Source: Promicromonospora sp. MEB111 (lineage in GTDB: Bacteria > Actinomycetota > Actinomycetes > Actinomycetales > Cellulomonadaceae). Taken from it: 64,000 bases of DNA. A model generated the notes under the pieces. It worked only from the letters and a program-made list of their open reading frames with translations. It ran no database searches and was not told where the DNA came from. Positions 7,127-20,484 of the stretch are shown here, piece after piece; position 1 is the first letter of the stretch, and each line of letters opens with the position of its first letter. The DNA is taken from contig NZ_JARVSD010000010.1 of assembly GCF_030209445.1 (NCBI RefSeq), forward strand, positions 1-64,000, given 5' to 3'. The position numbers and the translations under genes are program-made.

Positions 7127-9898
7127 TCAGCCCCGGGTGCCCCGCACCGTCAGCTCGACCGTGGTCCAGTCGCGGGTGCCCTCGCTGTCCGTCGCGATCA
7201 GCCGCGCCGTGTACCGGCCCGGCTCCTCGTAGACGTGCGTGACGGTCTGCCCGGCCGCGGTGGTCCCGTCGCCCAGGTCCCACTGGTAGGCGGCGATCTC
7301 ACGCCCCTCGGGCGCCACGGCGGACCCGGACAGGTCCACCGAGAGGCCCGCACGGCCGCCGGTACGGCCGGCCTCGGCCGTCACGACCGGGGCGGTGGCG
7401 TCGGCGACGCCGCGCCCGTGGAAGACGAGCCAGTCGAGACCGAGGTTCGCGCCGTCGGCCGGCTCGCGCTTGCTCTTCGCGACGAGGTAGAGCGTGGTCG
7501 CGCCGCCCTCCTCCTGGAGGTCGATCGTGGGCGAGACCACCTGCGCGGCGCCGGTGGCCGCGGCGACCGTGACCTGGCCGAGCTTGCGCCCGGTCGGGCT
7601 GCCGGCCCGCACCTCGACGGTCGCGTCGGCGGCGCCGCGGACGGCGCCGACCGTCAGCGCGTCGATGCCGCGCAGGTCGACCGGGCCGAACGCGATCCAG
7701 TCGCCGTGGTCGACGTCGGTCACCAGCCGGCCGCCGCGGGCGTCCGCGCCGTCCGACACGGTGACGCCGGAGCTGTCGGCGTAGAACTCGGCCTCCTTGT
7801 CGCGCACCTGCAGACGGTTGGTGTCCTGGCCGGCCAGCGCCGGGACGCCGTCGGCGCCGAGGTCCTCGTAGCCCGCCCCGAGCACGGGGTAGACGTTCTG
7901 CCCCACCCCGTGGTCCGCCGGGTCGAGGAACACCGACCCGGAGCACCCGGTGTAGTTGTCCAGGGGGTGCGCGTGGGTGTCGTGGCCGAGCTGGGTGTTC
8001 ACCGTGACCTGCTCGCAGTCGATGGTGCCCGCCTCGGTGGAGCCGTCCTCGGCGTCGGCCACGTCGACGGAGTACGGGACGGTGTCGCCGAGCTCGGCGA
8101 AGCCGCCGTGGAACGGCGCCCCGAAGGAGACGTCCGGCCGGGTGTTGCCGACCGTGATCTTCTGCACGGAGACACCGGCGAACCCCTCGCTGTCGGTGAC
8201 CGTCAGGCGCGCGCTGAACTGGCCGCGGTCGGTGTAGGTGTGCGTCGGGTCGGCCTCGGTGGAGTCGACGACGCCGTCGTTCTCGAAGTCCCACGCGTAG
8301 GTGATGTCGAGCCCGTCGGGGCTCTCGCTGGTGGCGCCGTCGAAGGCGACGGTGAGCGGTTCGTGGCCGGAGTCGACGTCGGCGGTGAACCGCGAGATCG
8401 GTCGCCGGCCGTCGGCCGCGTAGTCGACGCGGTAGATGCCGGCGTCGGTGTTGCTGCTACCGCGGCCGGCGCCTGACCCGCGGCCGAAGTCGATGATGTA
8501 GAGCGAGCCGTCGGGGCCGAACTCGGCCTCGAACGGGGCGACGAACGTCTCGCCCTCGAGGAACGGGTCGATCGAGGCGAGCTCGCCGGTGGCCTCGTCC
8601 AGCGAGAGCACCTTGTAGTAGTTGCGGGCGTACTCGGAGACGAACCAGTGCCCGTCGAAGCTCTCGGGGAACTTCGTCTTGACGTCGAGCCCCGGGTCGT
8701 AGCGGTAGACCGGGCCGCCCATGGGGGCCGCTCCGCCGGAGCCGAGCTCGGGGAACTCCTCGGACGGTCCGTAGCCGTACCAGACGAGCGGCTCCTGCGA
8801 CGGCGGGAGCTCGCGCAGGCCCGTGTTGTTGGGGGAGTCGTTCACCGGGCTGGCGCAGTCGAACGGCTCGCCCGAGGCCCCGGTGGCGAAGTCGTAGTCG
8901 ATGTACGCCTGGTTGTCGGCGTGGCAGTACGGCCAGCCGTGGTTGCCCGGCTCGGTCATCCGGATGAACTCGACCTGGCCGTCGGGTCCGCGCAGCGGGT
9001 CGGCCACGCGGGCGTCGGGCCCGTAGTCCCCGATGAGCACCGCACCGGTCCCGGGGTCCACGGTGATCCGGAACGGGTTGCGGAAGCCCATCCCGTAGAT
9101 CTCCGGACGAGTGCCCTCGGTGCCCGGCGCGAACAGGTTGCCGTCCGGGACCGAGTACGTGCCGTCGTCCTCCGGGGTGATGCGCAGCACCTTGCCGCGC
9201 AGGTCGTTCGTGTTGGCGGACGTGCCCTGCGCGTCCCAGCCGCGGCGGCCGGGACGCTCGTCGATCGGGGTGTAGCCCTGCTGGTCGAACGGGTCGGAGT
9301 TGTCACCGGTGGCGACATACAGGTCGCCGTCGGGGCCCATCGCGAGCGAGCCGGCCATGTGCGAGTTGGCGCGACCCTCGCCCCGCCAGATGGTGTAGTC
9401 GAGCAGGCGTTCCTCCGACGCCGGGTCGATCGTGTCGTCCGGCCCCATGGTGAACCGCGAGAGGTTCATCTTCGCCACGTCGGGGTCGCTCCAGAGCAGG
9501 TACAGCCACCCGTTCTCCGTGAAGTCCGGGTCCAGGGTCAGGCCCAGGAGGCCGTCGGACTGCGTGAGCAGGTCGAGCGAGTAGTCCAGGTCAAGGGCCG
9601 TGGTCTGGCGCAGCGTCTCCTGGTCCAGCACCACCACCTGGCCGGTGCGCTGGATGTAGACGACGCGGCCGTCGTCGGCCACGTCGAGCTCGAACGGGTC
9701 GGCGAGCCCTTCGGTGACCAGGGGGACCTTGTCGAACGCGGTGGCCTCGGCGTGGTCGGAGCCGGCGTGCTCGGAGCCAGGCGGGAGGTCGTGGGCGGTG
9801 GCGGCGGTCGTGGCGGGGACCAGGGCGCCGAGCGCGACGACCAGACCGGTCGTCGCGGCCAGTGCCCGGCGGTGTGCCCGGCGGTGCGGTGCGGACAT
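7127..9898 (-). CDS. Exported PQQ-type sugar dehydrogenase with PKD domains
   Basis: A 923-residue secreted protein, predicted to oxidise a sugar or glycoside outside the cell. A signal peptide (about 1-37) precedes a glucose/sorbosone-dehydrogenase beta propeller (about 50-490; ANSHMAGSLAMGPDGDLYVA and YGMGFRNPFRITVD are family-like). A PKD domain follows (about 500-590), then a beta-rich part with carbohydrate-binding character, then a second PKD domain at the C-terminus (YQWDLGDGTT). ATG 9898 is preferred because GGGAG lies 5 bases before it; a GTG at 9904 overlaps that site. It is the last of three co-directional exported genes. Cofactor assignment is by family, and substrate is unknown. 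Confidence 0.85.
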   Translation of the reverse strand: MSAPHRRAHRRALAATTGLVVALGALVPATTAATAHDLPPGSEHAGSDHAEATAFDKVPLVTEGLADPFELDVADDGRVVYIQRTGQVVVLDQETLRQTTALDLDYSLDLLTQSDGLLGLTLDPDFTENGWLYLLWSDPDVAKMNLSRFTMGPDDTIDPASEERLLDYTIWRGEGRANSHMAGSLAMGPDGDLYVATGDNSDPFDQQGYTPIDERPGRRGWDAQGTSANTNDLRGKVLRITPEDDGTYSVPDGNLFAPGTEGTRPEIYGMGFRNPFRITVDPGTGAVLIGDYGPDARVADPLRGPDGQVEFIRMTEPGNHGWPYCHADNQAYIDYDFATGASGEPFDCASPVNDSPNNTGLRELPPSQEPLVWYGYGPSEEFPELGSGGAAPMGGPVYRYDPGLDVKTKFPESFDGHWFVSEYARNYYKVLSLDEATGELASIDPFLEGETFVAPFEAEFGPDGSLYIIDFGRGSGAGRGSSNTDAGIYRVDYAADGRRPISRFTADVDSGHEPLTVAFDGATSESPDGLDITYAWDFENDGVVDSTEADPTHTYTDRGQFSARLTVTDSEGFAGVSVQKITVGNTRPDVSFGAPFHGGFAELGDTVPYSVDVADAEDGSTEAGTIDCEQVTVNTQLGHDTHAHPLDNYTGCSGSVFLDPADHGVGQNVYPVLGAGYEDLGADGVPALAGQDTNRLQVRDKEAEFYADSSGVTVSDGADARGGRLVTDVDHGDWIAFGPVDLRGIDALTVGAVRGAADATVEVRAGSPTGRKLGQVTVAAATGAAQVVSPTIDLQEEGGATTLYLVAKSKREPADGANLGLDWLVFHGRGVADATAPVVTAEAGRTGGRAGLSVDLSGSAVAPEGREIAAYQWDLGDGTTAAGQTVTHVYEEPGRYTARLIATDSEGTRDWTTVELTVRGTRG

Positions 9899-9961
9899 CA
9901 ACACTCCCTCGTGCTGGGTCGGATGGTGCGGGGGCGCCCTCCCGGGAGGAAGGGCGGTGCG

Positions 9962-11134
9962 TCAGTAGCGCAGCCCGGCGAGGTAGCCGAGGCTGGTGCA
10001 CGCGGAGGTCACGCCGTCCGGCGAGGGCTGGTCGTGCTCCGTGAAGCCGTACCGGACCCCGGCGAGCGGCGCCGCGGCGAAGATCTCGGCGAAGTCGATG
10101 GTGCCCGCGCCGACGTCGGCGAAGGAGCCGTCCTCGGCGATGTCCTTGAGGTGCAGCAGCTCGAACCGGCCCGGGTACCGCGCGAACAGGTCCGTGGCGG
10201 CGGTGTCCGTGCTGGCCGCCCAGTACACGTCGAGCTCCATCGTGACGAACGCCGGGTTCGTCTCCCGGACCAGCACGTCATAGCCCGTGACCCCGTTCTC
10301 CGCGGTCTCGAACTCGAACCCGTGGTTGTGGTAGGCGACCCGGATGCCCTCGGCGCTCAGCCGCTCACCCGCCTCGTTGAGGATCGCGGCGGTCCGGGAG
10401 TAGTCCGCGAGGGTCCACGAGCCGGATCCCGAGACGCGCACGTACCTCGCCCCGATCGCGTGCGCCTCGGCGACCACCAGGTCGACGTCGTTCTGCAGGT
10501 TCGACAGGCTGACGCCGAGCGACGGCACCTCCAGTCCCGCCGCTTCCGTGAGCGGCGCCAGCCCCGCGGCGGAGTAGCCGTAGAAGTTGCCGGCGCTGCC
10601 CGAGGGCTCGATGTTCCGGAAGCCGCACGCGGCGAGCGCCGCGAGCGTCCCGGCGGCGTCGGTGGGCATGGTCGCGCGGACCGTGTAGCCCACCAGGCCG
10701 ATCGCAGCCAGGTCGACGGAGCGTCCGCCCGTGACCGGATGGGGCCGGCCCACCTCCGAGACGGCGGCGGCGTGGACGACGTCCCGGCGCTCGCCGCCGG
10801 TGAGGACCCGCTCGCGGACGAGCCCCCGGGTCACGGAGGCGACCGTCCGGACGAACGCGCCGTGCGACGCGAACGGCGCGTCGGCCATGATCTCGTCCAT
10901 CACGGTGCAGCTGGACCGGGTCTCGCGGTTGGGCACGCCGGAGTCGGCGTCGGCGCCGAACCAGACCGTGGCCTGGCTGGTGTAGCCGTAGGCGCACGCG
11001 CTGGTCCCGGCCGGCGCGCCGGTCTCGGCGGCTCCCGCGGGCGCGGCCAGGACCGGCAGGGACAGCGTGGCGGCCACGGCCGCGGCGAGCCACGGCGTCG
11101 CGGCACGGGCAGAGTTGCGGGCGGTACGTTCCAT
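9962..11134 (-). CDS. Exported sugar isomerase/epimerase-like TIM barrel
   Basis: A 390-residue protein with a signal peptide (about 1-36; hydrophobic core, then APAGAA). Residues about 45-115 form a small domain with two cysteines and APFASHGAFVRTV, a pattern I recall from other exported actinobacterial proteins but cannot name. The rest is an AP-endonuclease-2-like TIM barrel (xylose isomerase-like) keeping metal-ligand motifs: VAYHNHGFEF, MELDVYWA, LLHLKD and TEHDQPSP. Such barrels act on sugars or 3-keto sugars and are normally cytoplasmic, so export is unusual. GGAGAGG precedes the ATG. It lies between the DUF1080 giant and the PQQ dehydrogenase, probably in one transcript. Confidence 0.82.
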   Translation of the reverse strand: MERTARNSARAATPWLAAAVAATLSLPVLAAPAGAAETGAPAGTSACAYGYTSQATVWFGADADSGVPNRETRSSCTVMDEIMADAPFASHGAFVRTVASVTRGLVRERVLTGGERRDVVHAAAVSEVGRPHPVTGGRSVDLAAIGLVGYTVRATMPTDAAGTLAALAACGFRNIEPSGSAGNFYGYSAAGLAPLTEAAGLEVPSLGVSLSNLQNDVDLVVAEAHAIGARYVRVSGSGSWTLADYSRTAAILNEAGERLSAEGIRVAYHNHGFEFETAENGVTGYDVLVRETNPAFVTMELDVYWAASTDTAATDLFARYPGRFELLHLKDIAEDGSFADVGAGTIDFAEIFAAAPLAGVRYGFTEHDQPSPDGVTSACTSLGYLAGLRY

Positions 11135-11172
11135 CAGTTGAACCTCTCCGTCGAGGGAGTCGAGGGACCAGA

Positions 11173-14100
11173 TCAGCGGACGGTCAGGTAGACCGTCGTC
11201 GTGCTCCGCCGGTAGACCGTGTCGCCGAGGTACGCCACGGTCACCGGGTGCACCCCCGCCTCCAGACCCGTGGTCGGGAGCCGGAGCCGGGCGGGGCCGC
11301 GGCCGAGCGTGGCCTTGACCGACGTGTCCCCGACGGTGACCCGGACGGTCCCCGTCGGCGCCGGGCGACCCTTGGCGCCGAGCACCCGCACGACCGACAG
11401 CGCCTCGCTGCCCGCCGGGACCTTCGACGGCGTGAGCCGCGCCGAGACCCCCGACGTCAGGCCCTGCCGGGTGCTCTCCTGCTCGGCCAGGCGCTCGATC
11501 CAGACGTTGCGGAACCGCGGGTTCGGGCCGGCGTCCCCGTGGTCCTGGAGCTTGATGTGGCCCGGCGTCGGCCCCTCGTTCCTGCCGTTGCCGGTCTTGC
11601 CGTCGATCGCCACGTCGTCGTGCACGAGCTGGCCGTTCCACCAGAGCGAGAGGCGGGCGTCCTCGGTCTTGGTCCCGTCCGGGGCGAACCGCGCGGCGCG
11701 GAACACGATGTCGTACGTCTGCCAGGTGCCCATCGCGGTCGCGGCGTTCACGTCCGGGGCCTTCTTCAGGTAGATCGAGCCGGCGTCGTTCGTGGCCGGC
11801 GGGTCGATGCCGAAGGACTCCAGCACCTGCACCTCGTAGCGCTCCTGGATGTAGACGCCGCTGTTGCCGCGCGCCTGACCCGTGACGTCGTCGGCGTGCT
11901 GGGGCTGGTACCACTCGGCGTGCATCCGGAAGTCGCCGAACTTCTCCTTGGTGCGGATGTCGCCGCCGAAGGACTCCATCGTGCCGTCCGCGACCGGCCA
12001 CGTCGCGGGCCCGCCGCTCGCCTTCTCCCACGCGTCGAGGTCGCCGCCGTCGAACAGGGGGATGCGTTCGGTGGGGGTGACGGTGAGGCTGTCGAGGTTC
12101 ACGTGCCCCACGTCGTCGGCGTCGTACGCGTAGGCGATCGTGTTCGCGCCCTCCTGGAGCTCGACGGTCTCGGTCTGCGTCTGCCAGCTGGACCAGCTCA
12201 CGGTGCTGTCGAGCCAGACCTGCCGCTGCTTGACGCCGTTGACGTACAGGCTCATCGACCGCGGCACCGGGCTGGGGTCGGAGTTCTGGCCGTTCGCGTA
12301 GCGCAGCGCCAGGTCGTGCGGGCCTGCCTCGTCGGCCTCGATCGCGAACGTGGTGCGCGCGCCGGGTTCCCAGTTGCGGTCCACGAACCCGGCGCCGGAG
12401 TACCCGGCGTGGTTGGTGTTCCAGCCGGCGCCGCCGGAGATGTCGGCGGCCTCGGCCTCGTAGACGGGCGGCGGAGTGGTGCCGTCCGGCAGCCGGTTCA
12501 GGGTGTACCAGGCCTCGGTGCTCCACAGCTCCGCGCCGCCCTCGGCCGCGAACGGCCGCGGGGAGTGCACGTTGACCACCCGGCCGGGCTTGAGCCCGTC
12601 GATCGCCAGGGTCACGGTCCTGCGGTCCGGGGACAGCGTGGCCGAGGTGACCTCCAGGTCCTCCTCGTCGACCTTGGGCCCGCCGTACTGCGGTGTGGAG
12701 ACGTAGCGCCACTGCGCCGCCTCGTACTTGTCGGCCAGGTTCTCGGCGGTCTCCTGCGAGAGCGGCTGCGTGTACTCGATCTCGAAGCCGCCGTCGACGG
12801 CGCGCATCTCGAGCATGTCGAACGCCCGGCTCTCGTCGAAGGTGAGCTTCTGCAGGCCGTAGCCGAGCTTGCCCGCCTGGCCCCAGTTGCCCGACCAGCC
12901 GATGCCGCCCACGTAGATCGAGCCGTCCGGGCCCACGCTCGTCCTGCTGACGCCGGACTCCAGCCCCTGCGTCATGCGGAACACGGCACCCTGCTCCTGG
13001 CCCGCGACGTCCTCCAGGTAGACGCGCTGCAGGCCGCCGTACGTCACGTCGCCGATCGCCATCTGGCCCTCGAACACGCCCTCCGTGAGGATCACGGGGT
13101 TGCTCGGCGAGTTGGAGATCTCGCCGTGCGGCATCCACACCACGGGCTCGGTCACGGGCTGGTCGTCGTACGGGCCGTCCGGGTTCGTGTAGTGGTTGTA
13201 GAACGCGCCCTCCTCGATGCGCACCAGCTTCGACGTCGGCACGTGCATGCCCTGGTTGTCGGTGACGTACATGCCGCCGTCGGCCCCGAAACCGAGGCCG
13301 TTCGGGGTGCGCAGGCCGCCCGCGAGGTACTCGACCTCGCCGGTGTCCTCGTCGATCTTCAGCACGGAGCCGCGGTTCTCGACGAGCTGCGGGTCGCGCG
13401 TCGCGCCGCCGGGCACCATCGCGATGCCCGTGGAGACGTAGAAGTAGCCGTCCTCGTACAGCAGGCCGAACGCGAACTCGTGGTAGTTGCCGCCGAACGG
13501 CCAGGTCGCGACCTCGCGGTACTCGTCGGTGACCTCGTCGCCGTCGGTGTCCACGAGCTCGGTCAGGCCGTGCTTCTCGGAGACGTAGATGCGGCCGTCG
13601 ACCACCTTGAGGCCCATCGGCTCCTCGAGCTCCTCGGCGATCTTGGTGTACGTGACGTCGTCGGCGCCGCCGTCGCCCGTCACGTTGTCGACCAGGTACA
13701 CCTCGCCGAGCACCGTCTCGCGGTCGCCGCCCCACGTGGCGATGGCCATGCGCCCGTCCGGCAGCCAGTCCATGCCCGTGACCTGCGGCTCGAAGCCGTC
13801 CGGGCGCAGGTTCGTCAGCGTGTAGTCGGGGTGCACCTCGGTCAGGGGCAGGCCGTCGCCCGGGGCCTCGTCGACCCCCTCGCAGACCTTGCGGCCCGGC
13901 GAGGTGACGCGCGTGACCTCGGCGTCGGTGCTCAGCACCGAGCTCGGCACCAGCGCGAAGCCGGTCGCGCCCGGCGGGCGCCACTCCAGCGTGAGCTGCT
14001 GGCCGAAGTCGCCGTCGAAGTGGTCGACGCGCAGCGCGTGGTACCCGGCCTCCAGCGCGGCCGACCCGTCCTTCGGCGTGGCACCGTGCTTGCCGGGGTG

Positions 14101-14505
14101 GTCCACCACCAGCGTCTCGTCGAGCAGCAGCCGCGCGCCGTCGTCGCTGGTGACGCGGAAATCGTAGGTGCCGGCGGCCGGCACGTTCAGGTAGCCCGTG
14201 ACCTCGGTGACGAACCGGTCGGCGAGGCCGAAGTCCGCCGCCGTGGTCCAGTCGATCGTCGGCATCAGCTTGTCGACGTTCGGCGTCTGGCCCGGCTTCA
14301 GCGTGCAGTAGTCGTCCAGCGGGACCTGGACGTCGAACACCCGCAGGGTGACGCCGGGCTCCTGGGGCCGGGTGGGGTCCGTCGCGGCCTGCGCGGTGGC
14401 CTGCGCGGTGGCCGGGACGTCCGCCTGCGCGGGGAGCACCGTGAGCGGCAGCACGAGCACGCCGAGCATCGCGGCGAGCGTGCGGTGGGTCGATCTGCGT
14501 TCCAT
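11173..14505 (-). CDS. Exported PA14/propeller/CBM/DUF1080 protein
   Basis: An 1110-residue secreted multidomain protein. In order: signal peptide (1-28); PA14-like domain (about 70-180; GTYDFRVTSDDGARLLLD); a sugar-dehydrogenase-like beta propeller (about 220-560); a linker; CBM6/35-like domain (about 670-800; YEAEAADISGG); a DUF1080 domain (about 805-1005; IPLFDGGDLDAWE and GNSGVYIQ); and an Ig-like C-terminal domain. Some DUF1080 members hydrolyse 3-keto-glycosides, so the protein may bind a glycan and process an oxidised form. GGAGAGGC precedes the ATG. The promoter overlaps a LacI-type operator at 14585. First gene of the three-gene exported set. Confidence 0.85.
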   Translation of the reverse strand: MERRSTHRTLAAMLGVLVLPLTVLPAQADVPATAQATAQAATDPTRPQEPGVTLRVFDVQVPLDDYCTLKPGQTPNVDKLMPTIDWTTAADFGLADRFVTEVTGYLNVPAAGTYDFRVTSDDGARLLLDETLVVDHPGKHGATPKDGSAALEAGYHALRVDHFDGDFGQQLTLEWRPPGATGFALVPSSVLSTDAEVTRVTSPGRKVCEGVDEAPGDGLPLTEVHPDYTLTNLRPDGFEPQVTGMDWLPDGRMAIATWGGDRETVLGEVYLVDNVTGDGGADDVTYTKIAEELEEPMGLKVVDGRIYVSEKHGLTELVDTDGDEVTDEYREVATWPFGGNYHEFAFGLLYEDGYFYVSTGIAMVPGGATRDPQLVENRGSVLKIDEDTGEVEYLAGGLRTPNGLGFGADGGMYVTDNQGMHVPTSKLVRIEEGAFYNHYTNPDGPYDDQPVTEPVVWMPHGEISNSPSNPVILTEGVFEGQMAIGDVTYGGLQRVYLEDVAGQEQGAVFRMTQGLESGVSRTSVGPDGSIYVGGIGWSGNWGQAGKLGYGLQKLTFDESRAFDMLEMRAVDGGFEIEYTQPLSQETAENLADKYEAAQWRYVSTPQYGGPKVDEEDLEVTSATLSPDRRTVTLAIDGLKPGRVVNVHSPRPFAAEGGAELWSTEAWYTLNRLPDGTTPPPVYEAEAADISGGAGWNTNHAGYSGAGFVDRNWEPGARTTFAIEADEAGPHDLALRYANGQNSDPSPVPRSMSLYVNGVKQRQVWLDSTVSWSSWQTQTETVELQEGANTIAYAYDADDVGHVNLDSLTVTPTERIPLFDGGDLDAWEKASGGPATWPVADGTMESFGGDIRTKEKFGDFRMHAEWYQPQHADDVTGQARGNSGVYIQERYEVQVLESFGIDPPATNDAGSIYLKKAPDVNAATAMGTWQTYDIVFRAARFAPDGTKTEDARLSLWWNGQLVHDDVAIDGKTGNGRNEGPTPGHIKLQDHGDAGPNPRFRNVWIERLAEQESTRQGLTSGVSARLTPSKVPAGSEALSVVRVLGAKGRPAPTGTVRVTVGDTSVKATLGRGPARLRLPTTGLEAGVHPVTVAYLGDTVYRRSTTTVYLTVR

Positions 14506-14559
14506 GGGCCTGCCTCTCCATCGAGGACCTTGCCTGGCTGGGACCGTGCCTACGCCACG

Positions 14560-14590
14560 TCACTATGCGGTGAGCGGTAACCCCGGACAA
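14560..14590 (-). promoter_or_regulatory. Promoter of the exported oxidoreductase/DUF1080 operon
   Basis: On the minus strand a TTGTCC -35 (14585-14590) forms the downstream end of the operator. After a 17-bp spacer comes CATAGT as -10. A LacI protein bound to the operator would cover the -35. Confidence 0.6.
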
Positions 14591-14609
14591 CGAGTTGCCA
14601 CTTGTTGCC
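14585..14609. promoter_or_regulatory. LacI-type operator, copy 1
   Basis: A 25-bp imperfect palindrome with half-sites CAACAAGT and ACTCGTTG around GGCA. The same 25 bp, plus 2 identical flanking bases on each side, recurs inverted at 16317-16341. It lies upstream of the DUF1080 operon. Confidence 0.75.
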
Positions 14610-14777
14610 CCTCCCGAGGTGCGCGCACCACCTCGCCGGACGACGGTGCGTGATGTGGAGGTGGACAGGCGTTCACCAGGCGATCCGAGACCGTGAAGGG
14701 CCGGGTTACGGCCGCAGACCGCCTGGTGAACGAGTGTCCGACTGCACGCGCGAGAAAGGATCGGGCAGCGGGTCCCG

Positions 14778-15806
14778 TCAGGCGCGGCGGGCCGTCGAGC
14801 CGCGTTCGACGAGCTTCGCCGGGAGCAGCGCCGGGGCCGACAGGCCGGGCGACGAGCCGGACGACGGGGCGCGCAGCTGGTTCAGGAGGCGCTGGACGGC
14901 GAACGTCCCGAAGTGGCGCAGGGGAGAGGCGACCGTCGTCAGCGGCGGGGTGCAGAAGTCGGAGCCGAAGATGTTGTCGAACCCGACGACGCTCAGGTCG
15001 CGCGGTATCTCGACCCCCAGCCGCGTCAGCCCGCGCATCGTGCCGATCGCGACGAGGTCGTTGTAGGCGACGGTCGCGGTCGCGGAATGGGTGGTCAGGG
15101 CCTGGGCGGCCGAGAGCCCGCCGGCGAGCGTCGGCGCGAACGGGCCGAGGCGCCACGCCCGCAGGCCGAGCTCCCGGGTCGCCTCGCGGAAGGCACGCCA
15201 GCGCATGCCGTCGGCCCAGGAGGCCTCGGGGCCGGCCAGGTACGTCAGCCGGGCGTGGCCGAGGCCTGCCAGGTGCTCGACGGCGCGCCGCATCCCCTGC
15301 GCGTTGTCGGTCACCACGCTCGGGACGTCCGTGACGACGCGGTTCATCACCACGGTCGGCCGCTGCTTGGCGACGGCCCGGATCGCCGCGTCCGACAGCC
15401 GCGACGTGGCGAGGACGACCCCCTCCACCAGGGGCAGCGTGCGCTCCAGGGCCCGGCGCTCCGCCCCGCTCGACTCGTGCGCGTCCACCACGAGGAGCGT
15501 GTACCCGGAGTCGATGGCGGTCTTCTCGGCGCTACGGATGATCTCGAAGAAGAACGGGTTGGTCAGGTCGGCCACGACGATCGCGAGCAGCGCGGTCCGG
15601 CCGTCCGGCAGGCCGCGCCCGATGGGGCTGGTCCGGTAGCCGAGCTCGTGCGCGACGCGGCGGATGCGGTCCGCCGTCTCCGCGTTGACGCGCCCCGGCC
15701 GGGAGAACGCCCGTGAGACGGTCGAGGGTGCGACGCCGGCGGCCCTGGCGACGTCGTAGATGGTCGGTCTGGTCCGAGAGCTCCCTGTTTCGCCAGTTTC
15801 GCCCAT
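14778..15806 (-). CDS. LacI-family transcriptional regulator
   Basis: A 342-residue repressor, predicted to control the surrounding carbohydrate genes. The N-terminal HTH is TIYDVARAAGVAPSTVSRAF with the hinge helix following GYRTSPIGRGL, then a periplasmic-binding-like sensor domain (IVVADLTNPFFFEIIRSAE; VVGFDNIFGSDFCTPPLTT). ATG 15806 is chosen because TACGCT lies 8 bases before it and the HTH follows after a short tail. Three matched operators flank it at 14585, 15889 and 16317, and a separate perfect palindrome lies 30 bases before its own start. The inducer is unknown. Confidence 0.92.
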   Translation of the reverse strand: MGETGETGSSRTRPTIYDVARAAGVAPSTVSRAFSRPGRVNAETADRIRRVAHELGYRTSPIGRGLPDGRTALLAIVVADLTNPFFFEIIRSAEKTAIDSGYTLLVVDAHESSGAERRALERTLPLVEGVVLATSRLSDAAIRAVAKQRPTVVMNRVVTDVPSVVTDNAQGMRRAVEHLAGLGHARLTYLAGPEASWADGMRWRAFREATRELGLRAWRLGPFAPTLAGGLSAAQALTTHSATATVAYNDLVAIGTMRGLTRLGVEIPRDLSVVGFDNIFGSDFCTPPLTTVASPLRHFGTFAVQRLLNQLRAPSSGSSPGLSAPALLPAKLVERGSTARRA

Positions 15807-15814
15807 GCGCGGGG

Positions 15815-15820
15815 AGCGTA
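15815..15820 (-). promoter_or_regulatory. Leaderless-type -10 box of lacI gene
   Basis: TACGCT on the minus strand, 8 bases before the ATG at 15806. Confidence 0.45.
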
Positions 15821-15835
15821 CGGCGAGCGGACGGC

Positions 15836-15855
15836 GACGGCAACCATTTGCCGTC
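15836..15855. promoter_or_regulatory. Perfect palindrome upstream of lacI
   Basis: GACGGCAA and TTGCCGTC are exact reverse complements around CCAT. It lies 30 bases before the lacI start, over the expected -35 region. It shares the GGCAA core of the three operators and probably mediates autoregulation. Confidence 0.6.
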
Positions 15856-15888
15856 TGGGGCCCGGCCGTGGCACGTTCTGACGCGCCC

Positions 15889-15913
15889 GGCAAGAGGTGG
15901 CAACACCTTGACC
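15889..15913. promoter_or_regulatory. LacI-type operator, copy 2 (diverged)
   Basis: Matches 20 of 25 positions of the operators at 14585 and 16317, keeping the central GTGGCAAC and terminal TTGNCC. The terminal TTGACC is a good -35 for the small gene at 15944. It may serve both that gene and lacI. Confidence 0.65.
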
Positions 15914-15937
15914 GCCCCTGGCGCGCCCGCCTCGAAT
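15908..15937 (+). promoter_or_regulatory. Promoter of the LarE-C-like gene
   Basis: TTGACC -35 (15908-15913), 18-bp spacer, TCGAAT -10 (15932-15937), then the ATG 6 bases later. The -35 is the right end of operator copy 2. Confidence 0.5.
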
Positions 15938-15943
15938 GACGCC

Positions 15944-16258
15944 ATGACCCTGCCTACCGACCTGCCCGACGTGCCGTCCGACGCGTCGTCCGACCCCGTC
16001 GCGGACGAGGCGGTCCAGGTCGAGGCCGCGGAGAGCGAGCTCAGGCGCCTCGGCCTCGAGGAGATCCGCGTGCGGCACCACGGAGACCTGGCGCGGCTCG
16101 AGGCGCCGCACGCCGACCTCGCGAGCCTGGCGGCGGAGCCCCTGCGCGGTGAGGTGCTGCGGGCCGTGCGGTCCGCGGGCTTCCGGTCGGTGGCCGTCGA
16201 CCTGGAGGCCGTCACGGACGGCGCCACGGACGGCCCGACCGACCCGCGCGACGGCTGA
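15944..16258 (+). CDS. Small protein resembling the C-terminal end of LarE
   Basis: A 104-residue protein. From about residue 28 it reads like the end of LarE (the sulfur transferase that builds the nickel-pincer cofactor of lactate racemase): IRVRHHGDLARLEAP, then EVLRAVRSAGFRSVAVDLEA. The PP-loop ATPase half of LarE is absent, so the sulfur-transfer reaction cannot be assumed. It may be a stand-alone regulatory or binding module, or a remnant. A TCGAAT -10 lies 6 bases before the ATG and a TTGACC -35 is embedded in operator copy 2, so it looks like a live LacI-controlled gene. Confidence 0.6.
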   Translation: MTLPTDLPDVPSDASSDPVADEAVQVEAAESELRRLGLEEIRVRHHGDLARLEAPHADLASLAAEPLRGEVLRAVRSAGFRSVAVDLEAVTDGATDGPTDPRDG

Positions 16259-16316
16259 CCGACGGCCGGCCGGGCCGCGATGGCAACCGCCTGCCGCCGG
16301 GTGCGCACGGTGGCGG

Positions 16317-16341
16317 GGCAACAAGTGGCAACTCGTTGTCC
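16317..16341. promoter_or_regulatory. LacI-type operator, copy 3
   Basis: Identical, in inverted orientation, to the 25 bp at 14585-14609 plus two flanking bases each side. It stands upstream of the ABC importer genes. Confidence 0.78.
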
Positions 16342-16364
16342 GGCCCGGGCGCGGCTCATAGTGT
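16336..16364 (+). promoter_or_regulatory. Promoter of the ABC importer operon
   Basis: TTGTCC -35 (16336-16341, the end of operator copy 3), a 17-bp spacer, then TAGTGT -10 (16359-16364). The leader to the first gene is about 150 bases and shows no riboswitch-like structure I can recognise. Confidence 0.55.
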
Positions 16365-16524
16365 CCCCGGTGACGAGCAGCCCCACAGGCCGGGGCCGCT
16401 GACCTGCTCTACCGACCGGCACCTCCCGGACGACGACGTCCGGCGTGCCCTGACCCGCTGCCCCACGGTGTCGACGTCGACCCGTGCGACGAAACGGAAA
16501 GAGCGAACTATGGAGGATCACGCC

Positions 16525-17397
16525 ATGGTGACCACCCAGGAGGCCCGCCCCACGAGTTCGTCCAGGTCACGGCCGACGGCGCCGCCTGTCGGCGGCACAC
16601 CGTCCGGGAGCCGGGTGCTGACGCTGCTTGCGGAGTCGTGGCGGCCGGCGGCGGTGCTGCTCGCACTGTTCGCGCTCTGGTGGTTCGTGGCCTGGCGCGA
16701 GCTGGTCCCCGCCTACCTGGTGCCCTCGCCCGGCGCGGTCGCGGAGACGATGGTCGCCGAGTGGGCGATGCTGCTGGAGCACACGTGGGTGACCACGCTG
16801 GAGACGATCGTCGGGTTCGTGCTCGCGGCCGTGATCGGCGTGGCGGCGGCCGTGCTGCTGGTCTACTCCAGGACGGCGGAGAAGTCCCTGTACCCGCTGA
16901 TCCTCTTCGCCCAGGTGATCCCGAAGATCGCCATCGCGCCCATCCTGGTGGTCTGGTTCGGGTTCGGGATGACGCCGAAGATCGTCCTGGCCGTCCTCAT
17001 CGCCTTCTTCCCGGTCGTGGTCTCGGCCGTGGCGGGGCTGCGCTCGGTCGACCCGGAGCTGCTGGAGATGTCCGCGACGATGGGCGCGTCGCGGTGGAAG
17101 ACCTTCCGCAAGATCCGGTTCCCCGGGGCGCTCCCGCAGCTCATGTCCGGCCTGAAGGTCGCGGTCACGCTGGCGGTCGTGGGCGCCGTCGTCGGCGAGT
17201 TCGTGGGCGCCGACCGCGGCCTCGGGTACGTGCTGCTGCTCGCCAGCGGCAACCTCGACGCACCGCTGCTCTTCGCCGACCTCATCCTCATGTCGCTCAT
17301 CGGCGTGGTCCTCTTCGTGCTGGTCGAGGTGCTCGAACGCCTCCTGATCCCGTGGCACGCCTCGCGGCGCGGCAACCTCGCGCTCGCGACGGTCTGA
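16525..17397 (+). CDS. ABC importer permease, SsuC/TauC type
   Basis: A 290-residue inner-membrane subunit of an importer of the nitrate/sulfonate/pyrimidine (NMT1-associated) class. About six transmembrane segments are visible, and the ATPase-contact loop is ELLEMSATMGASRWKTFRKI. The inner ATG at 16525 is preferred because GGAGG lies 8 bases before it; an ATG at 16510 overlaps that site. It is the first gene of permease, binding protein, ATPase and dehydrogenase, all in one direction behind operator copy 3. Substrate is not evident. Confidence 0.88.
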   Translation: MVTTQEARPTSSSRSRPTAPPVGGTPSGSRVLTLLAESWRPAAVLLALFALWWFVAWRELVPAYLVPSPGAVAETMVAEWAMLLEHTWVTTLETIVGFVLAAVIGVAAAVLLVYSRTAEKSLYPLILFAQVIPKIAIAPILVVWFGFGMTPKIVLAVLIAFFPVVVSAVAGLRSVDPELLEMSATMGASRWKTFRKIRFPGALPQLMSGLKVAVTLAVVGAVVGEFVGADRGLGYVLLLASGNLDAPLLFADLILMSLIGVVLFVLVEVLERLLIPWHASRRGNLALATV

Positions 17398-17463
17398 CCC
17401 CGGCCCGCGCACTCTCCCGCGTTACCGCCGTCACCGTGGCGGCCCGACCAGAAAGGCTCTCCC

Positions 17464-18531
17464 GTGCGTGCTGACAACAAGCGTGGTGGCAACAAGCATG
17501 ACGGCAGGATCCGTGGCCGCAGGACCGTGATGTCGCTGGCCGTGGCCGGCGTCGCGCTGGCGACGGTCGCGGCCTGCGGGCAGACCGCCGGGGGCGGGTC
17601 GGGCGAGCAGAACGCCGAGGGCCTGAGCGAGGTCACGGTGACGCTCAACTGGGTGCCGTACGGCGAGCACGCGCCGTTCTACTACGGCGTGGCGGAGGGG
17701 ATCTTCGAGGACGAGGGGATCGACCTGACGATCCAGCCGGGCAACGGGTCCGGGAACACCGTGCAGCAGGTCGCGCAGCGCAACACCGACTTCGGGTGGG
17801 CGGACACCCCGCCGCTGGCGAACGGGATCAGCTCCGGCATGCCGGTGCGCAGCGTCGGCGTCTTCCTGCAGACCGGCCCGAGCTCGGTCGAGTTCTTCGA
17901 CGACCAGGGCATCACCGAGCCCGCCGACCTCGTGGGCAAGACGGTGGGCGGCACCCCCGGCGACGCCATGTACGGCACCTTCCCGGCGTGGCTGGAGATC
18001 AACGGCGTGGACCCGGACGACGTGACCGTGGTCAACGTCGACGCCGCGGGCAAGATCGCCGCGCTGATCGAGGGCAAGGTCGACGCCATCCAGGGCTTCT
18101 ACCACGACCAGGCGCCGACCATCGAGAACCAGACCGGCAAGGAGGTCTCGGCCCTGCCGTTCTCGGAGTTCGGCATGAACATGCTCGGCACCGGCCTCCT
18201 GGCGCACGAGGCGACGATCGAGAGCGACCCCGAGCTGGTCCAGGCGATGGTGCGGGCGACGTCGAAGTCGTTCCTCGCGGCGTCCGAGGACCCGGAGGCC
18301 GCCGTCGCCGCGATGGCCGCAGACGCGGAGCAGGCGCCGGAGGAGAGCGTGCTCGCGGCCCAGCTCGAGGCGACCATCGGCCTGCTCAACCTGGAGGCCG
18401 CCCCCGCTCCCGGCGTGAACACCGAGGAGCAGTGGACCGACACGCTGACGTTCCTGACGGAGAACACCGAGTTCGAGGGCGATTCCACCCCGGACGCCTA
18501 CTGGGACGCGACCTTCGGGGAGGACCTGTGA
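17464..18531 (+). CDS. ABC importer substrate-binding lipoprotein, NMT1 type
   Basis: A 355-residue lipoprotein that captures the ligand for the flanking permease and ATPase. The signal peptide has RGRRTVMSLAVAG and the lipobox ATVAAC. The mature start TVTLNWVPYGEHAPFYYGVA, then GIFEDEGIDL and the NTDFGWADTPPL loop, are typical of the NMT1/THI5-like binding fold (pyrimidine precursors, riboflavin, sulfonates). A GTG start follows GAAAGG. Its stop overlaps the ATPase start by 4 bases. In a carbohydrate regulon this family is unexpected; the ligand could be a sugar-derived product. Confidence 0.88.
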   Translation: MRADNKRGGNKHDGRIRGRRTVMSLAVAGVALATVAACGQTAGGGSGEQNAEGLSEVTVTLNWVPYGEHAPFYYGVAEGIFEDEGIDLTIQPGNGSGNTVQQVAQRNTDFGWADTPPLANGISSGMPVRSVGVFLQTGPSSVEFFDDQGITEPADLVGKTVGGTPGDAMYGTFPAWLEINGVDPDDVTVVNVDAAGKIAALIEGKVDAIQGFYHDQAPTIENQTGKEVSALPFSEFGMNMLGTGLLAHEATIESDPELVQAMVRATSKSFLAASEDPEAAVAAMAADAEQAPEESVLAAQLEATIGLLNLEAAPAPGVNTEEQWTDTLTFLTENTEFEGDSTPDAYWDATFGEDL

Positions 18532-19358
18532 CGGCCACGACCGGGCCCACGACCGAGCAGAGCACGTCCGCGGGGAGCACCGACGCCGAGCCGATCATCG
18601 AGGTCGCGCACCTCACGCGGCGCTTCACGTCCAAGCGGTCGGAGACCGTCGCGCTCGACGACGTGTCGCTCGCCGTGCGGCCCGGGGAGTTCGTGACGAT
18701 CGCGGGGCCGTCGGGCTGCGGCAAGTCGACGCTGCTCAAGATCATCGCGGGGCTGACGCTCGCCACGGACGGCGACGTGCGCTTGTACGGGCGGCCGGTG
18801 ACCGGGCCGCAGCGCGAGATCGGCTTCGCCTTCCAGCGCTCGGCCCTGCTGGAGTGGCGGGGCGTGCGCAAGAACATCCTGCTCCAGGCCGAGATGCGTG
18901 GCATGGACCGGCGTCGGGCGGAGGAGCGCGCGGACCACCTCATCGAGCTCGCCGGCCTGACCGGGTTCGAGAGGGCCCTGCCGCACGAGCTGTCCGGTGG
19001 CATGCAGCAGCGCGTCGCGCTGTGCCGCGCCCTGCTGCACGAGCCCCGGGTGCTGCTCATGGACGAGCCGTTCGGCGCGCTCGACGCGCTCACGCGCGAG
19101 CAGATGAACATCGAGATGAACCGGATCTGGCGCGAGACCGGGACCACGGTGGTGCTGGTGACCCACTCTGTGCCGGAGGCGGTGTACCTGGGCAGCAGGA
19201 TCGTCGTCATGAGCCCGCGGCCGGGCCGGATCGTGGAGACCCTCGAACCGGGCCTGCCGGAGCGCCGCGAGTACGGCCCGACGCTCGCCGACCCGCGGTT
19301 CACCGCGGCGGCCGAGCGCCTGCGGGAGCTGCTCGGCGCGAGCCATGCGACGGAGTGA
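18528..19358 (+). CDS. ABC importer ATPase, SsuB/TauB type
   Basis: A 276-residue ATP-hydrolysing subunit. Walker A is GPSGCGKST, the Q-loop is in FQRSALLEW, the signature is LSGGMQQR, Walker B is VLLMDEPFGALDAL, and the switch His is in VTHSVPEA. GTG start within GTGA, overlapping the binding-protein stop by 4 bases, so translation is coupled. A long inverted repeat begins 29 bases after its stop and may reduce transcription into the dehydrogenase. Confidence 0.92.
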   Translation: MTATTGPTTEQSTSAGSTDAEPIIEVAHLTRRFTSKRSETVALDDVSLAVRPGEFVTIAGPSGCGKSTLLKIIAGLTLATDGDVRLYGRPVTGPQREIGFAFQRSALLEWRGVRKNILLQAEMRGMDRRRAEERADHLIELAGLTGFERALPHELSGGMQQRVALCRALLHEPRVLLMDEPFGALDALTREQMNIEMNRIWRETGTTVVLVTHSVPEAVYLGSRIVVMSPRPGRIVETLEPGLPERREYGPTLADPRFTAAAERLRELLGASHATE

Positions 19359-20484
19359 CCCGACCGGCGACGAGGCTGCGCCGCCGCCCGACGTGTCAGA
19401 CCCACAGTTCACCGTGGTGACCTGTGGGTCTGACACGTCGGGGAGTGTTCCCCTCGGCGTGGGGATCGTCGGGATGGGCGGCATCGGGCGGATGCACGCC
19501 CTGGCGCTCGCCGAGCTCGGCGATCGGGCGCGCCTGGTCGCGTTCAGCGGCGGGGCGACGGCGGATGTGGTGGGCGGCGCCGTGCGGCTCGCACCGCACG
19601 ACGTGATCGCCCGTCCCGACGTCGACGTGGTCGCGATCTGTACGCCGAGCGGCACGCACGCGACGCTCGCGCTGGCGGCGCTGGAGGCCGGCCGGCACGT
19701 CGTCGTCGAGAAGCCGCTCGCGCTCGACGTGGGCGACGCGCTGCGGGTCGCGGACGCGGCGCGCGAGCGCGGGCTGACGGTCTCGATGATCTCCCAGCGC
19801 CGTCTGGAGGCCGAGCACGTCGTGCTCAAGCAGGCCCTCGACGACGGCGCGCTGGGCGCGCTGCGGCTCGCGATGACGCACGTGCACTGGTTCCGCGACG
19901 ACGACTACTACCGCGCGGCGGGCTGGCGGTCCACGGCGGCGCAGGGCGGCGGGTCCCTGATGAACCAGGGCGTGCACAACGTCGACCTGCTGCGCTGGAT
20001 GTGCGGCCCGGTCGAGTCGGTGACGGCGCAGTCCGGCACGCTCGCGCACGCGATCGAGGCCGAGGACACGACCGTGGCGACCCTCCGGTTCGCCTCGGGT
20101 GCGCTCGGTGTGGTGACCACGACGACGGCGACACCGCCCGGGTTCCCCGCGACGATCGCCCTGTTCGGCTCCCGGGGCTCGGTCGAGCTCGGGCAGGGGG
20201 AGGTGCGGCGCTGGGACGTGCCGGGGGTGCCGGAGCCGGGGACGGGCGCGATCGCGAGCGGTGCGGCCGACCCGCTCGCGATCGGGCACGCGGGACACCT
20301 GGCTCAGTGGACCCGGATCGTCGACGCCCTGGAGACGTCCTCACCGGTGCCCGTCGGCGTCGACGACGCGCTGGAGACCGTCCGGCTGCTGTGCGCGATC
20401 CAGACGGCGGCGGCGACCGGGGCGGTGGTCCGGCCGGCGGACCTGGGCCGGACCCGTCAGTCCCAACCCGGACCGCAGTTGTGA
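19345..20484 (+). CDS. Gfo/Idh/MocA-family oxidoreductase
   Basis: A 379-residue NAD(P)-dependent dehydrogenase, probably oxidising a sugar, inositol or keto-sugar in the cytoplasm. The dinucleotide site is GIVGMGGIGRMHA, the catalytic Lys motif is VVVEKPLAL, and GGSLMNQGVHNVDLLRW is the family's C-domain motif. The fold starts only near residue 36. The preceding 35 residues are encoded partly by a 56-base inverted repeat, so the real start is uncertain: ATG 19345 (overlapping the ATPase by 14 bases) or a later GTG. Its 3' end overlaps the convergent gene at 20457 by 28 bases. Confidence 0.85.
   Translation: MRRSDPTGDEAAPPPDVSDPQFTVVTCGSDTSGSVPLGVGIVGMGGIGRMHALALAELGDRARLVAFSGGATADVVGGAVRLAPHDVIARPDVDVVAICTPSGTHATLALAALEAGRHVVVEKPLALDVGDALRVADAARERGLTVSMISQRRLEAEHVVLKQALDDGALGALRLAMTHVHWFRDDDYYRAAGWRSTAAQGGGSLMNQGVHNVDLLRWMCGPVESVTAQSGTLAHAIEAEDTTVATLRFASGALGVVTTTTATPPGFPATIALFGSRGSVELGQGEVRRWDVPGVPEPGTGAIASGAADPLAIGHAGHLAQWTRIVDALETSSPVPVGVDDALETVRLLCAIQTAAATGAVVRPADLGRTRQSQPGPQL
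19387..19442. repeat. Long perfect inverted repeat inside an operon
   Basis: Arms of 21 bp (19387-19407 and 19422-19442) are exact reverse complements, and the 14-base centre pairs further through CACCGTGGTG. It sits after the ATPase stop and inside the 5' end of the dehydrogenase frame. No U tract follows. It could be a REP-like element, an RNA-stability barrier or a partial terminator. Confidence 0.85.

What the first reader, a model, noticed from the sequence alone, without database searches (positions are those of the whole stretch)
7127..20484. Candidate exported oxidative glycoside-processing system with NMT1-type uptake
Three consecutive exported proteins combine a PQQ-type sugar dehydrogenase, a sugar-isomerase-like TIM barrel and a DUF1080 domain with PA14/CBM modules. 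Known DUF1080 members act on 3-keto-glycosides, TIM barrels of this class can process keto-sugars, and Gfo/Idh enzymes make or reduce keto-sugars. One operator set joins them to an importer of a family not normally used for sugars and to a Gfo/Idh enzyme. The inference is an extracellular oxidise-then-cleave pathway whose product is imported and dehydrogenated. The whole assembly, including the LarE-like piece, is not a layout I know.
Basis: inference. Interest (0 to 1): 0.8.

Follow-up and report, generated by a model that had tools for sequence, protein, structure and literature searches.

The report
Exported keto-glycoside cleavage operon with importer
A soil actinobacterium carries a jointly regulated gene set that appears to break sugar linkages outside the cell through keto-sugar chemistry and to import the product with a transporter of a family not usually used for sugars; similar sets recur in related bacteria, but no activity has been measured.

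Summary
Three exported proteins (propeller-PKD-CBM6; TIM barrel; PA14-propeller-CBM35-DUF1080), a LacI repressor, a small LarE-C-terminal protein, an NMT1/THI5-type ABC importer and a Gfo/Idh enzyme lie at 7127-20484. One palindrome occurs three times in 64 kb, each time in this cluster, and at least three times in 12 of 16 Promicromonospora, Cellulosimicrobium and Oerskovia loci. Homologues of the exported proteins flank the importer in 48 of 80 loci. In relatives the exported modules are fused into single proteins near a sugar-type importer and Gfo/Idh. The TIM barrel keeps the five metal/catalytic residues of the 3-keto-glucoside beta-eliminase AtOGE, as do 40 of 40 homologous stretches. 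Weak point: PQQ. The propeller keeps the quinoprotein fold and catalytic His, but the Lys377 and Arg408 positions differ in 46 of 46 homologous stretches, and PqqE was not found over cut-off. Best reading: an extracellular version of the known oxidation-elimination-reduction route for glycosides, oxidation step unproven, with an unusual importer for its keto-sugar or glycal product. New variant of a known kind.

The parts
7127..9904 (-). P0001, exported protein: GSDH-type beta propeller, PKD, CBM6, PKD
   Evidence: Pfam; AlphaFold model (mean pLDDT 80); nearest folds 1c9u/1cq1, TMq 0.60-0.61 with large rmsd 9-10
9962..11134 (-). P0003, exported TIM barrel (AP_endonuc_2) with an N-terminal stretch without Pfam match; five AtOGE metal/catalytic residues present
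11173..14505 (-). P0002, exported PA14-DUF7133 propeller-CBM35-DUF1080 (3keto-disac_hyd)-Ig protein
   Evidence: Pfam; propeller fold (model of moderate confidence, mean pLDDT 69)
14586..14609 (.). operator 1, upstream of the exported operon (core 14586-14599)
14778..15806 (-). P0007, LacI-family regulator
15889..15912 (.). operator 2, between lacI and the LarE-C gene (core 15899-15912)
15944..16258 (+). P0005, stand-alone LarE C-terminal-domain protein with a codon pattern of purifying selection
   Evidence: LarE positions 189-257; no LarE over cut-off in genome
16317..16340 (.). operator 3, upstream of the importer operon (core 16327-16340)
16510..17397 (+). ABC permease, TauC/SsuC type (start chosen by comparison with L087)
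17464..18531 (+). P0004, NMT1/THI5-type substrate-binding lipoprotein
18528..19358 (+). ABC ATPase, TauB type
19345..20484 (+). P0006, Gfo/Idh oxidoreductase, no export signal seen; N-terminus uncertain

Best explanation
An inducible catabolic unit for glycosides. Exported, carbohydrate-binding enzymes break glycosidic bonds by 3-keto chemistry: (1) a hydroxyl, probably C3, of the sugar is oxidised outside the cell, possibly by the GSDH and/or DUF7133 propellers with a cofactor that need not be PQQ (inferred, weakest step); (2) the exported metal-dependent TIM barrel and the DUF1080 domain release the aglycone or next sugar by beta-elimination or hydrolysis and may hydrate the glycal (inferred from residues and family); (3) the NMT1/THI5-type importer takes up the small keto-sugar or planar 2-hydroxy-3-keto-glycal (inferred); (4) the cytoplasmic Gfo/Idh enzyme reduces it to an ordinary sugar (inferred). 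LacI represses all units through three conserved operators until an inducer appears (operator conservation shown; binding inferred).
For: Operator palindrome at least three times in 12 of 16 loci of three genera. Homologues of the exported GSDH/ThuA/DUF7133/DUF1080 modules near the importer in 45 of 80 loci, 48 of 80 with the exported TIM type; L101 has TIM, SBP, ATPase, Gfo, GSDH and PA14-DUF7133 genes on one strand. Of 20 NMT1 proteins in five genomes a GSDH lies within 10 kb of 3 of 5 clade members and 0 of 15 others. Fusions ThuA-GSDH-PKD-CBM6-TIM-DUF1080 and PA14-DUF7133-CBM35-DUF1080-TIM, some with LPxTG-like tails or SLH. TIM: AtOGE residues H132, H134, D163, H189, E233 present, also in 40 of 40 homologous stretches (roles from passages of PMC10628242). 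In the same genome a second cluster (L074) joins the same exported types to a ribose-type importer and Gfo/Idh, so a sugar-like product is likely. Precedents: DUF1080 with signal peptide for lactose in Caulobacter (PMC9007349, passages); oxidation-elimination-hydration-reduction of levoglucosan (PMC7676230, passages).
Against: No activity measured. PQQ ligands are incomplete and PqqE did not reach cut-off; no CxxCH haem motif in P0001-P0003, so no electron acceptor is visible. 32 of 80 loci show no exported module in reach (22 of the 80 loci are 20 kb or shorter). In seven Cellulosimicrobium/Oerskovia loci only the DUF7133-DUF1080 type was found, without GSDH or TIM in the flanks, so these two look dispensable there. 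The Gfo/Idh is below the equivalog cut-offs shown (best IolG 138 of 355 bits). P0002 matches no glycoside-specific NCBIfam model, and its DUF1080 stretch no solved structure by sequence at E 0.01.
Confidence: 0.55

Rival explanations
1. The importer carries the aglycone, not the sugar: the exported enzymes strip sugar from a planar aromatic or heterocyclic glycoside, and the NMT1/THI5-type protein takes up the freed ring compound.
For: Closest solved relatives of the SBP are pyrimidine-precursor and taurine/sulfonate proteins (3ix1, THI5, 6ssy).
Against: Partner genes at importer loci look sugar-directed: Gfo/Idh, AP_endonuc_2 TIM and MR_MLE recur; glycerate kinase at L057 and L161, mannitol dehydrogenase and UxaC at L102. 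A ribose-type importer stands in similar clusters.
Confidence: 0.2
2. The propellers are not oxidases but binding or scaffold domains; the exported TIM and DUF1080 process keto-glycosides that other enzymes or organisms oxidised.
For: Lys377 and Arg408 equivalents absent in the window protein and in 46 of 46 homologous stretches; no CxxCH; PqqE not over cut-off. Hedgehog-interacting protein has the fold (match) without a redox role (recalled).
Against: Catalytic His144, Arg228 and Asn229 equivalents are kept in 44 of 46 stretches, the other 2 being gapped; the AA12 propeller binds PQQ without Lys377 (PMC6881789, passages).
Confidence: 0.25
3. The pathway serves an inositol-like cyclitol or cyclitol glycoside: TIM as IolE-like, Gfo/Idh as IolG-like.
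For: Best NCBIfam names are IolE for P0003 (36 bits) and IolG for P0006 (138 bits).
Against: Both far below cut-offs 290 and 355; P0003 has a signal peptide and matches 8TCS/8TCD/8TCT and AtOGE best among solved structures; DUF1080 has no known place there.
Confidence: 0.1
4. Chance neighbourhood: a LacI-controlled importer of unrelated function next to an exported enzyme operon.
For: 32 of 80 importer loci lack an exported module in the flanks.
Against: Shared conserved operators and recurrence in distant genera.
Confidence: 0.05

Closest known systems
BT2156-BT2159-type glycoside oxidation-elimination pathway of Bacteroides (BT2157 as 3-ketotrehalose hydrolase cited in PMC9007349, passages; full pathway recalled)
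   Same: DUF1080, AP_endonuc_2 TIM barrel and Gfo/Idh enzymes encoded together
   Different: Here the TIM and DUF1080 enzymes are exported with propellers and CBMs, with a dedicated NMT1-type ABC importer; Gfo/Idh far below the BT2158/BT2159 cut-offs
Caulobacter LacABC plus DUF1080 lactose route (PMC9007349, passages)
   Same: Extracytoplasmic oxidation followed by a DUF1080 protein with a signal peptide; transporter and reductase nearby
   Different: Oxidation there by the membrane dehydrogenase LacABC, not by beta propellers; gram-negative; single-domain DUF1080
Levoglucosan pathway LgdA-LgdB1-LgdB2-LgdC (PMC7676230, passages)
   Same: Keto-sugar beta-elimination and hydration by sugar-isomerase-like proteins, then reduction; LacI and ABC importer in the cluster
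   Different: Importer there is annotated as a sugar type; I take the enzymes to be cytoplasmic (inference)
AtOGE 3-keto-O-glucoside beta-eliminase (8BVK, PMC10628242, passages)
   Same: P0003 keeps the five metal/catalytic residues
   Different: P0003 has a signal peptide and an extra N-terminal stretch; the match is 64-65 bits, so specificity may differ
Soluble quinoprotein glucose dehydrogenase and aldose sugar dehydrogenases (GSDH, AA12)
   Same: Propeller fold, catalytic His, Arg-Asn pair
   Different: Lys377 and Arg408 positions differ; PqqE not over cut-off in the genome

Membership tests
PQQ-dependent soluble sugar dehydrogenase (GSDH) | quinoprotein propeller fold | tested here: met
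   GSDH 93.5 bits over cut-off 25; top folds 1c9u, 1cq1
PQQ-dependent soluble sugar dehydrogenase (GSDH) | catalytic His144 | tested here: met
   His in window and in 44 of 46 homologous stretches, 2 gapped
PQQ-dependent soluble sugar dehydrogenase (GSDH) | PQQ ligands Lys377 and Arg408 | tested here: not met
   Ala and Phe in window; 0 of 46 homologous stretches have them; Lys377 is also absent in AA12 (PMC6881789, passages)
PQQ-dependent soluble sugar dehydrogenase (GSDH) | PQQ-dependent sugar oxidation | not testable with these tools
   needs assay
3-keto-disaccharide hydrolase (DUF1080, PF06439) | profile match over cut-off | tested here: met
   136.2 bits, cut-off 26.8
3-keto-disaccharide hydrolase (DUF1080, PF06439) | cleavage of a 3-keto-glycoside | not testable with these tools
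   needs assay
AtOGE-type keto-glycoside beta-eliminase | metal and catalytic residues H132, H134, D163, H189, E233 | tested here: met
   five of five aligned; 40 of 40 homologous stretches
AtOGE-type keto-glycoside beta-eliminase | beta-elimination activity | not testable with these tools
   needs assay
NMT1/THI5-SsuA importer family | PF09084 SBP with TauC/TauB-type permease and ATPase | tested here: met
   153 bits, cut-off 20.5; permease and ATPase names, below equivalog cut-offs
BT2158/BT2159 glycoside or disaccharide 3-dehydrogenase | NCBIfam equivalog cut-off | tested here: not met
   P0006 27.7 of 750 and 23.5 of 650 bits
LarE | full-length protein over the NCBIfam cut-off | tested here: not met
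   P0005 44.7 of 150 bits, only positions 189-257

The most novel reading that the evidence does not exclude
A surface-exposed, propeller-driven glycoside oxidation-elimination machine, in some relatives one polypeptide, whose planar 2-hydroxy-3-keto-glycal product is imported by an NMT1/THI5-type transporter recruited for sugar uptake; the propellers oxidise with altered PQQ binding or another cofactor.
Probability: 0.25. Interest if true: 0.8.

Novelty: new variant of a known kind. Interest (0 to 1): 0.6.

Why it matters
If right, gram-positive soil bacteria do the recently described keto-sugar route of glycoside cleavage outside the cell, with multidomain exported proteins, and one importer family gains a sugar-derived substrate. 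It would give a function to actinobacterial proteins now named 'PQQ-dependent sugar dehydrogenase' and to DUF7133 proteins, whose annotated cofactor is doubtful, and it is directly testable with synthetic 3-keto-glycosides.

Tried and rejected
LarE piece as a broken remnant: judged unlikely. Its codons differ most at third positions, as in the neighbouring genes, in each of 14 loci of three genera (no formal dN/dS). Longer ORFs at L091, L096, L100 and L102 also match only LarE's C-terminal half or less, below cut-off. Its role stays unknown.

The hairpin 19387-19442 as a special control element: its arm is a genome-wide repeat, 62 single-arm hits with at most one mismatch against 0 for the reversed control, so REP-like.

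The DUF1080 stretch against solved structures: nothing at E 0.01. The 105-residue N-terminal stretch of P0003: no Pfam match and no homologue among 300 proteins of the first 20 neighbourhoods. Papers: nine searches showed no description of this actinobacterial arrangement in the listings returned (up to 20 papers each); the 2024 Bacteroides pathway paper is recalled, not seen.

The SBP search at E 1e-50 in 248 genomes of the order gave 5 genomes, the window's included; the 80 named loci are the best 80 of 563 relatives, a biased sample.
Full report
What is there. and searches give the gene map; Pfam and NCBIfam name the domains. Three exported proteins are encoded on the minus strand (P0002 14505-11173, P0003 11134-9962, P0001 9904-7127) with short gaps, so probably one operon. 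Next come lacI (15806-14778, minus), a 104-codon LarE-C-terminal gene (15944-16258, plus), and permease-SBP-ATPase followed by Gfo/Idh (16510-20484, plus).

Regulation. A 32-base inverted pair, 97% complementary, lies at 14583-14614 and 16312-16343. In the own genome the 16-mer GACAACNNGTTGCCAC occurs exactly only at these two places; of 16 two-mismatch places one is at 15897-15912 and 15 are elsewhere; the reversed control gives 50 hits, so two-mismatch hits alone mean little. The palindrome G[AGT]CAA[CG]NN[CG]TTG[ACT]C has three hits in the window, each here, against 0.06 expected. In the 80 importer loci it occurs at least three times in 12 of the 16 from Promicromonospora, Cellulosimicrobium and Oerskovia; two on short contigs have 2 and 1; L095 (5 kb) and L101 (rearranged) have none; of the other 64, four have one hit. 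In the 12 the sites lie around lacI as in the window (by eye against the gene calls). LacI binding is inferred.

Recurrence. With an SBP alignment the named genome collection gave 563 relatives, best 80 kept, under 27 genus labels (three of them placeholders), nearest Promicromonospora (91% identical), so the window comes from that genus or near kin (inference). By tblastn at E 1e-15, 45 of 80 loci (16 of 27 labels) hold homologues of the exported GSDH, ThuA, DUF7133 or DUF1080 modules; export was not tested in each. Three more hold only the exported TIM type (L103, L104, L107), giving 48 of 80. 58 of 80 loci exceed 20 kb, 38 of them with a module of the first list. Six Promicromonospora loci hold GSDH, TIM, DUF7133/DUF1080 and Gfo together. 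Counter-cases: 16 loci, 13 of them Micromonospora, have DUF993 and a second TIM but no exported module; nine have none of the partners tabulated, five of them on short contigs. In seven Cellulosimicrobium/Oerskovia loci only the DUF7133/DUF1080 protein of the exported set is found, so GSDH and TIM look dispensable there.

Control. In five genomes chosen because they hold the clade, 20 NMT1 proteins and 11 GSDH places were found. A GSDH lies within 10 kb of 3 of 5 clade proteins and of 0 of 15 others (hypergeometric 10/1140, own arithmetic; without the window's genome 2 of 4 against 0 of 11, 6/105). L056 and L057 there pair the importer and a LacI with GSDH-laminin_G proteins of 1302 and 1406 residues; L057 adds Gfo/Idh, DUF993 and a TIM.

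Fusions. Among 248 genomes of the order the TIM query matched 42 at E 1e-20, the window's included. I read neighbourhoods of 13 of these genomes and of the four other SBP genomes (one, G021, in both sets) and ran five giant proteins through Pfam: ThuA-GSDH-PKD-CBM6-TIM-DUF1080-collagen (L042:11686-17403); ThuA-GSDH-PKD-CBM6-TIM (L043:3909-11009); PA14-CBM35-DUF1080-TIM with DUF7133-like propellers by phmmer (L043:11307-15968; L054:6487-12021, with an SLH match); GSDH-PKD-TIM (L045:4354-8931). Four giants end in LPxTG-like tails (L042 twice, L043, L052, by eye). Thus the window's three proteins are the unfused form of modules that elsewhere share one chain. Genes near the giants at L042, L052 and L053 include Peripla_BP_4 SBPs, separate TIM genes and Gfo/Idh. 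The own genome has such a cluster on contig C17 (L074): PA14-DUF7133-CBM35-DUF1080, two-domain ATPase, BPD_transp_2 permease, Peripla_BP_4 SBP, Gfo/Idh, ThuA-GSDH. The same exported types with either of two unrelated importers argues for a sugar-like product.

Chemistry. P0003 aligns with 8BVK (AtOGE, E 5.5e-17) with H132, H134, D163, H189 and E233 kept; passages of PMC10628242 give their roles and the Mn2+ need. 40 of 40 homologous stretches keep the five. It aligns better with 8TCS, 8TCD and 8TCT, whose function I could not look up (no paper). P0001 has the quinoprotein fold (mean pLDDT 80). The His144, Arg228 and Asn229 equivalents are kept in 44 of 46 homologous stretches (2 gapped); Lys377 is T/A/S/G and Arg408 I/F/M/L in 46 of 46; the Arg406 position is Arg in 14 of 46, Ala in the window. 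Roles of Lys377, Arg408 and His144 come from passages of PMC6881789; those of Arg228, Asn229 and Arg406 in PQQ binding are recalled. The mapping of the C-terminal positions rests on sequence alignment, with the profile alignment to 2g8s and 2ism in agreement for the Arg408 position. PqqE: best 47.9 of 381 bits; none of 14 control genomes passed either; other PQQ-synthesis genes were not searched and exogenous PQQ is not excluded. No CxxCH in P0001-P0003. So a redox role is possible, PQQ doubtful.

Product and importer. The SBP's best solved matches are a pyrimidine-precursor binder (3ix1), 4nmy and THI5/THI13 proteins. A planar enone such as 2-hydroxy-3-keto-glucal, the beta-elimination product in PMC7676230, would suit such a pocket; this is my inference. 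P0006 is a Gfo/Idh enzyme below the equivalog cut-offs; reduction of the imported keto-sugar, as by LgdC, is the likeliest role.

LarE piece. Present in 14 of 80 loci, with more change at third codon positions in each. Neither P0005 nor the seven homologues scored reached the LarE cut-off, and no place in the genome did. Function unknown.

Verdict. Real, sharing operators, recurring; an extracellular variant of a known keto-glycoside route with an unusual importer; oxidation step and substrates unproven.

Noticed in passing
window 19387-19442: Palindrome with 27-nt arms between ATPase and Gfo/Idh genes; its arm has 62 hits (at most one mismatch) in the genome: REP-like element.
   Followed up: partly
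window 15944-16258: Stand-alone LarE C-terminal-domain gene with a purifying-selection codon pattern in three genera; no LarE over cut-off in the genome.
   Followed up: partly
L074 (own genome C17): Second cluster with PA14-DUF7133-DUF1080, ThuA-GSDH, ribose-type importer and Gfo/Idh.
   Followed up: partly
L076:9727-13779: Third ThuA-GSDH protein of the own genome, also holding the DUF1080 match; no importer homologue of the window seen in the 20 kb read.
   Followed up: no
alignment A1, before the residue numbered His124: 13 of 14 relatives have a Cys-Cys pair directly before the catalytic His of the GSDH propeller; the window protein and L043:4779-6164 lack it.
   Followed up: no
16 loci, e.g. 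L113, L116, L118, L164: Importer clade with DUF993 and a second TIM but no exported module in the flanks: perhaps a related but different sugar pathway.
   Followed up: no
P0003 residues 36-140: N-terminal stretch of the exported TIM protein without Pfam match; near full-length alignments exist in Georgenia, Agromyces and Micromonospora (344-384 of 390 residues).
   Followed up: partly
L042-L046, L051 (G067, G225, G137): Arrays of several giant GSDH/TIM proteins, six TIM matches within about 62 kb in G225.
   Followed up: partly
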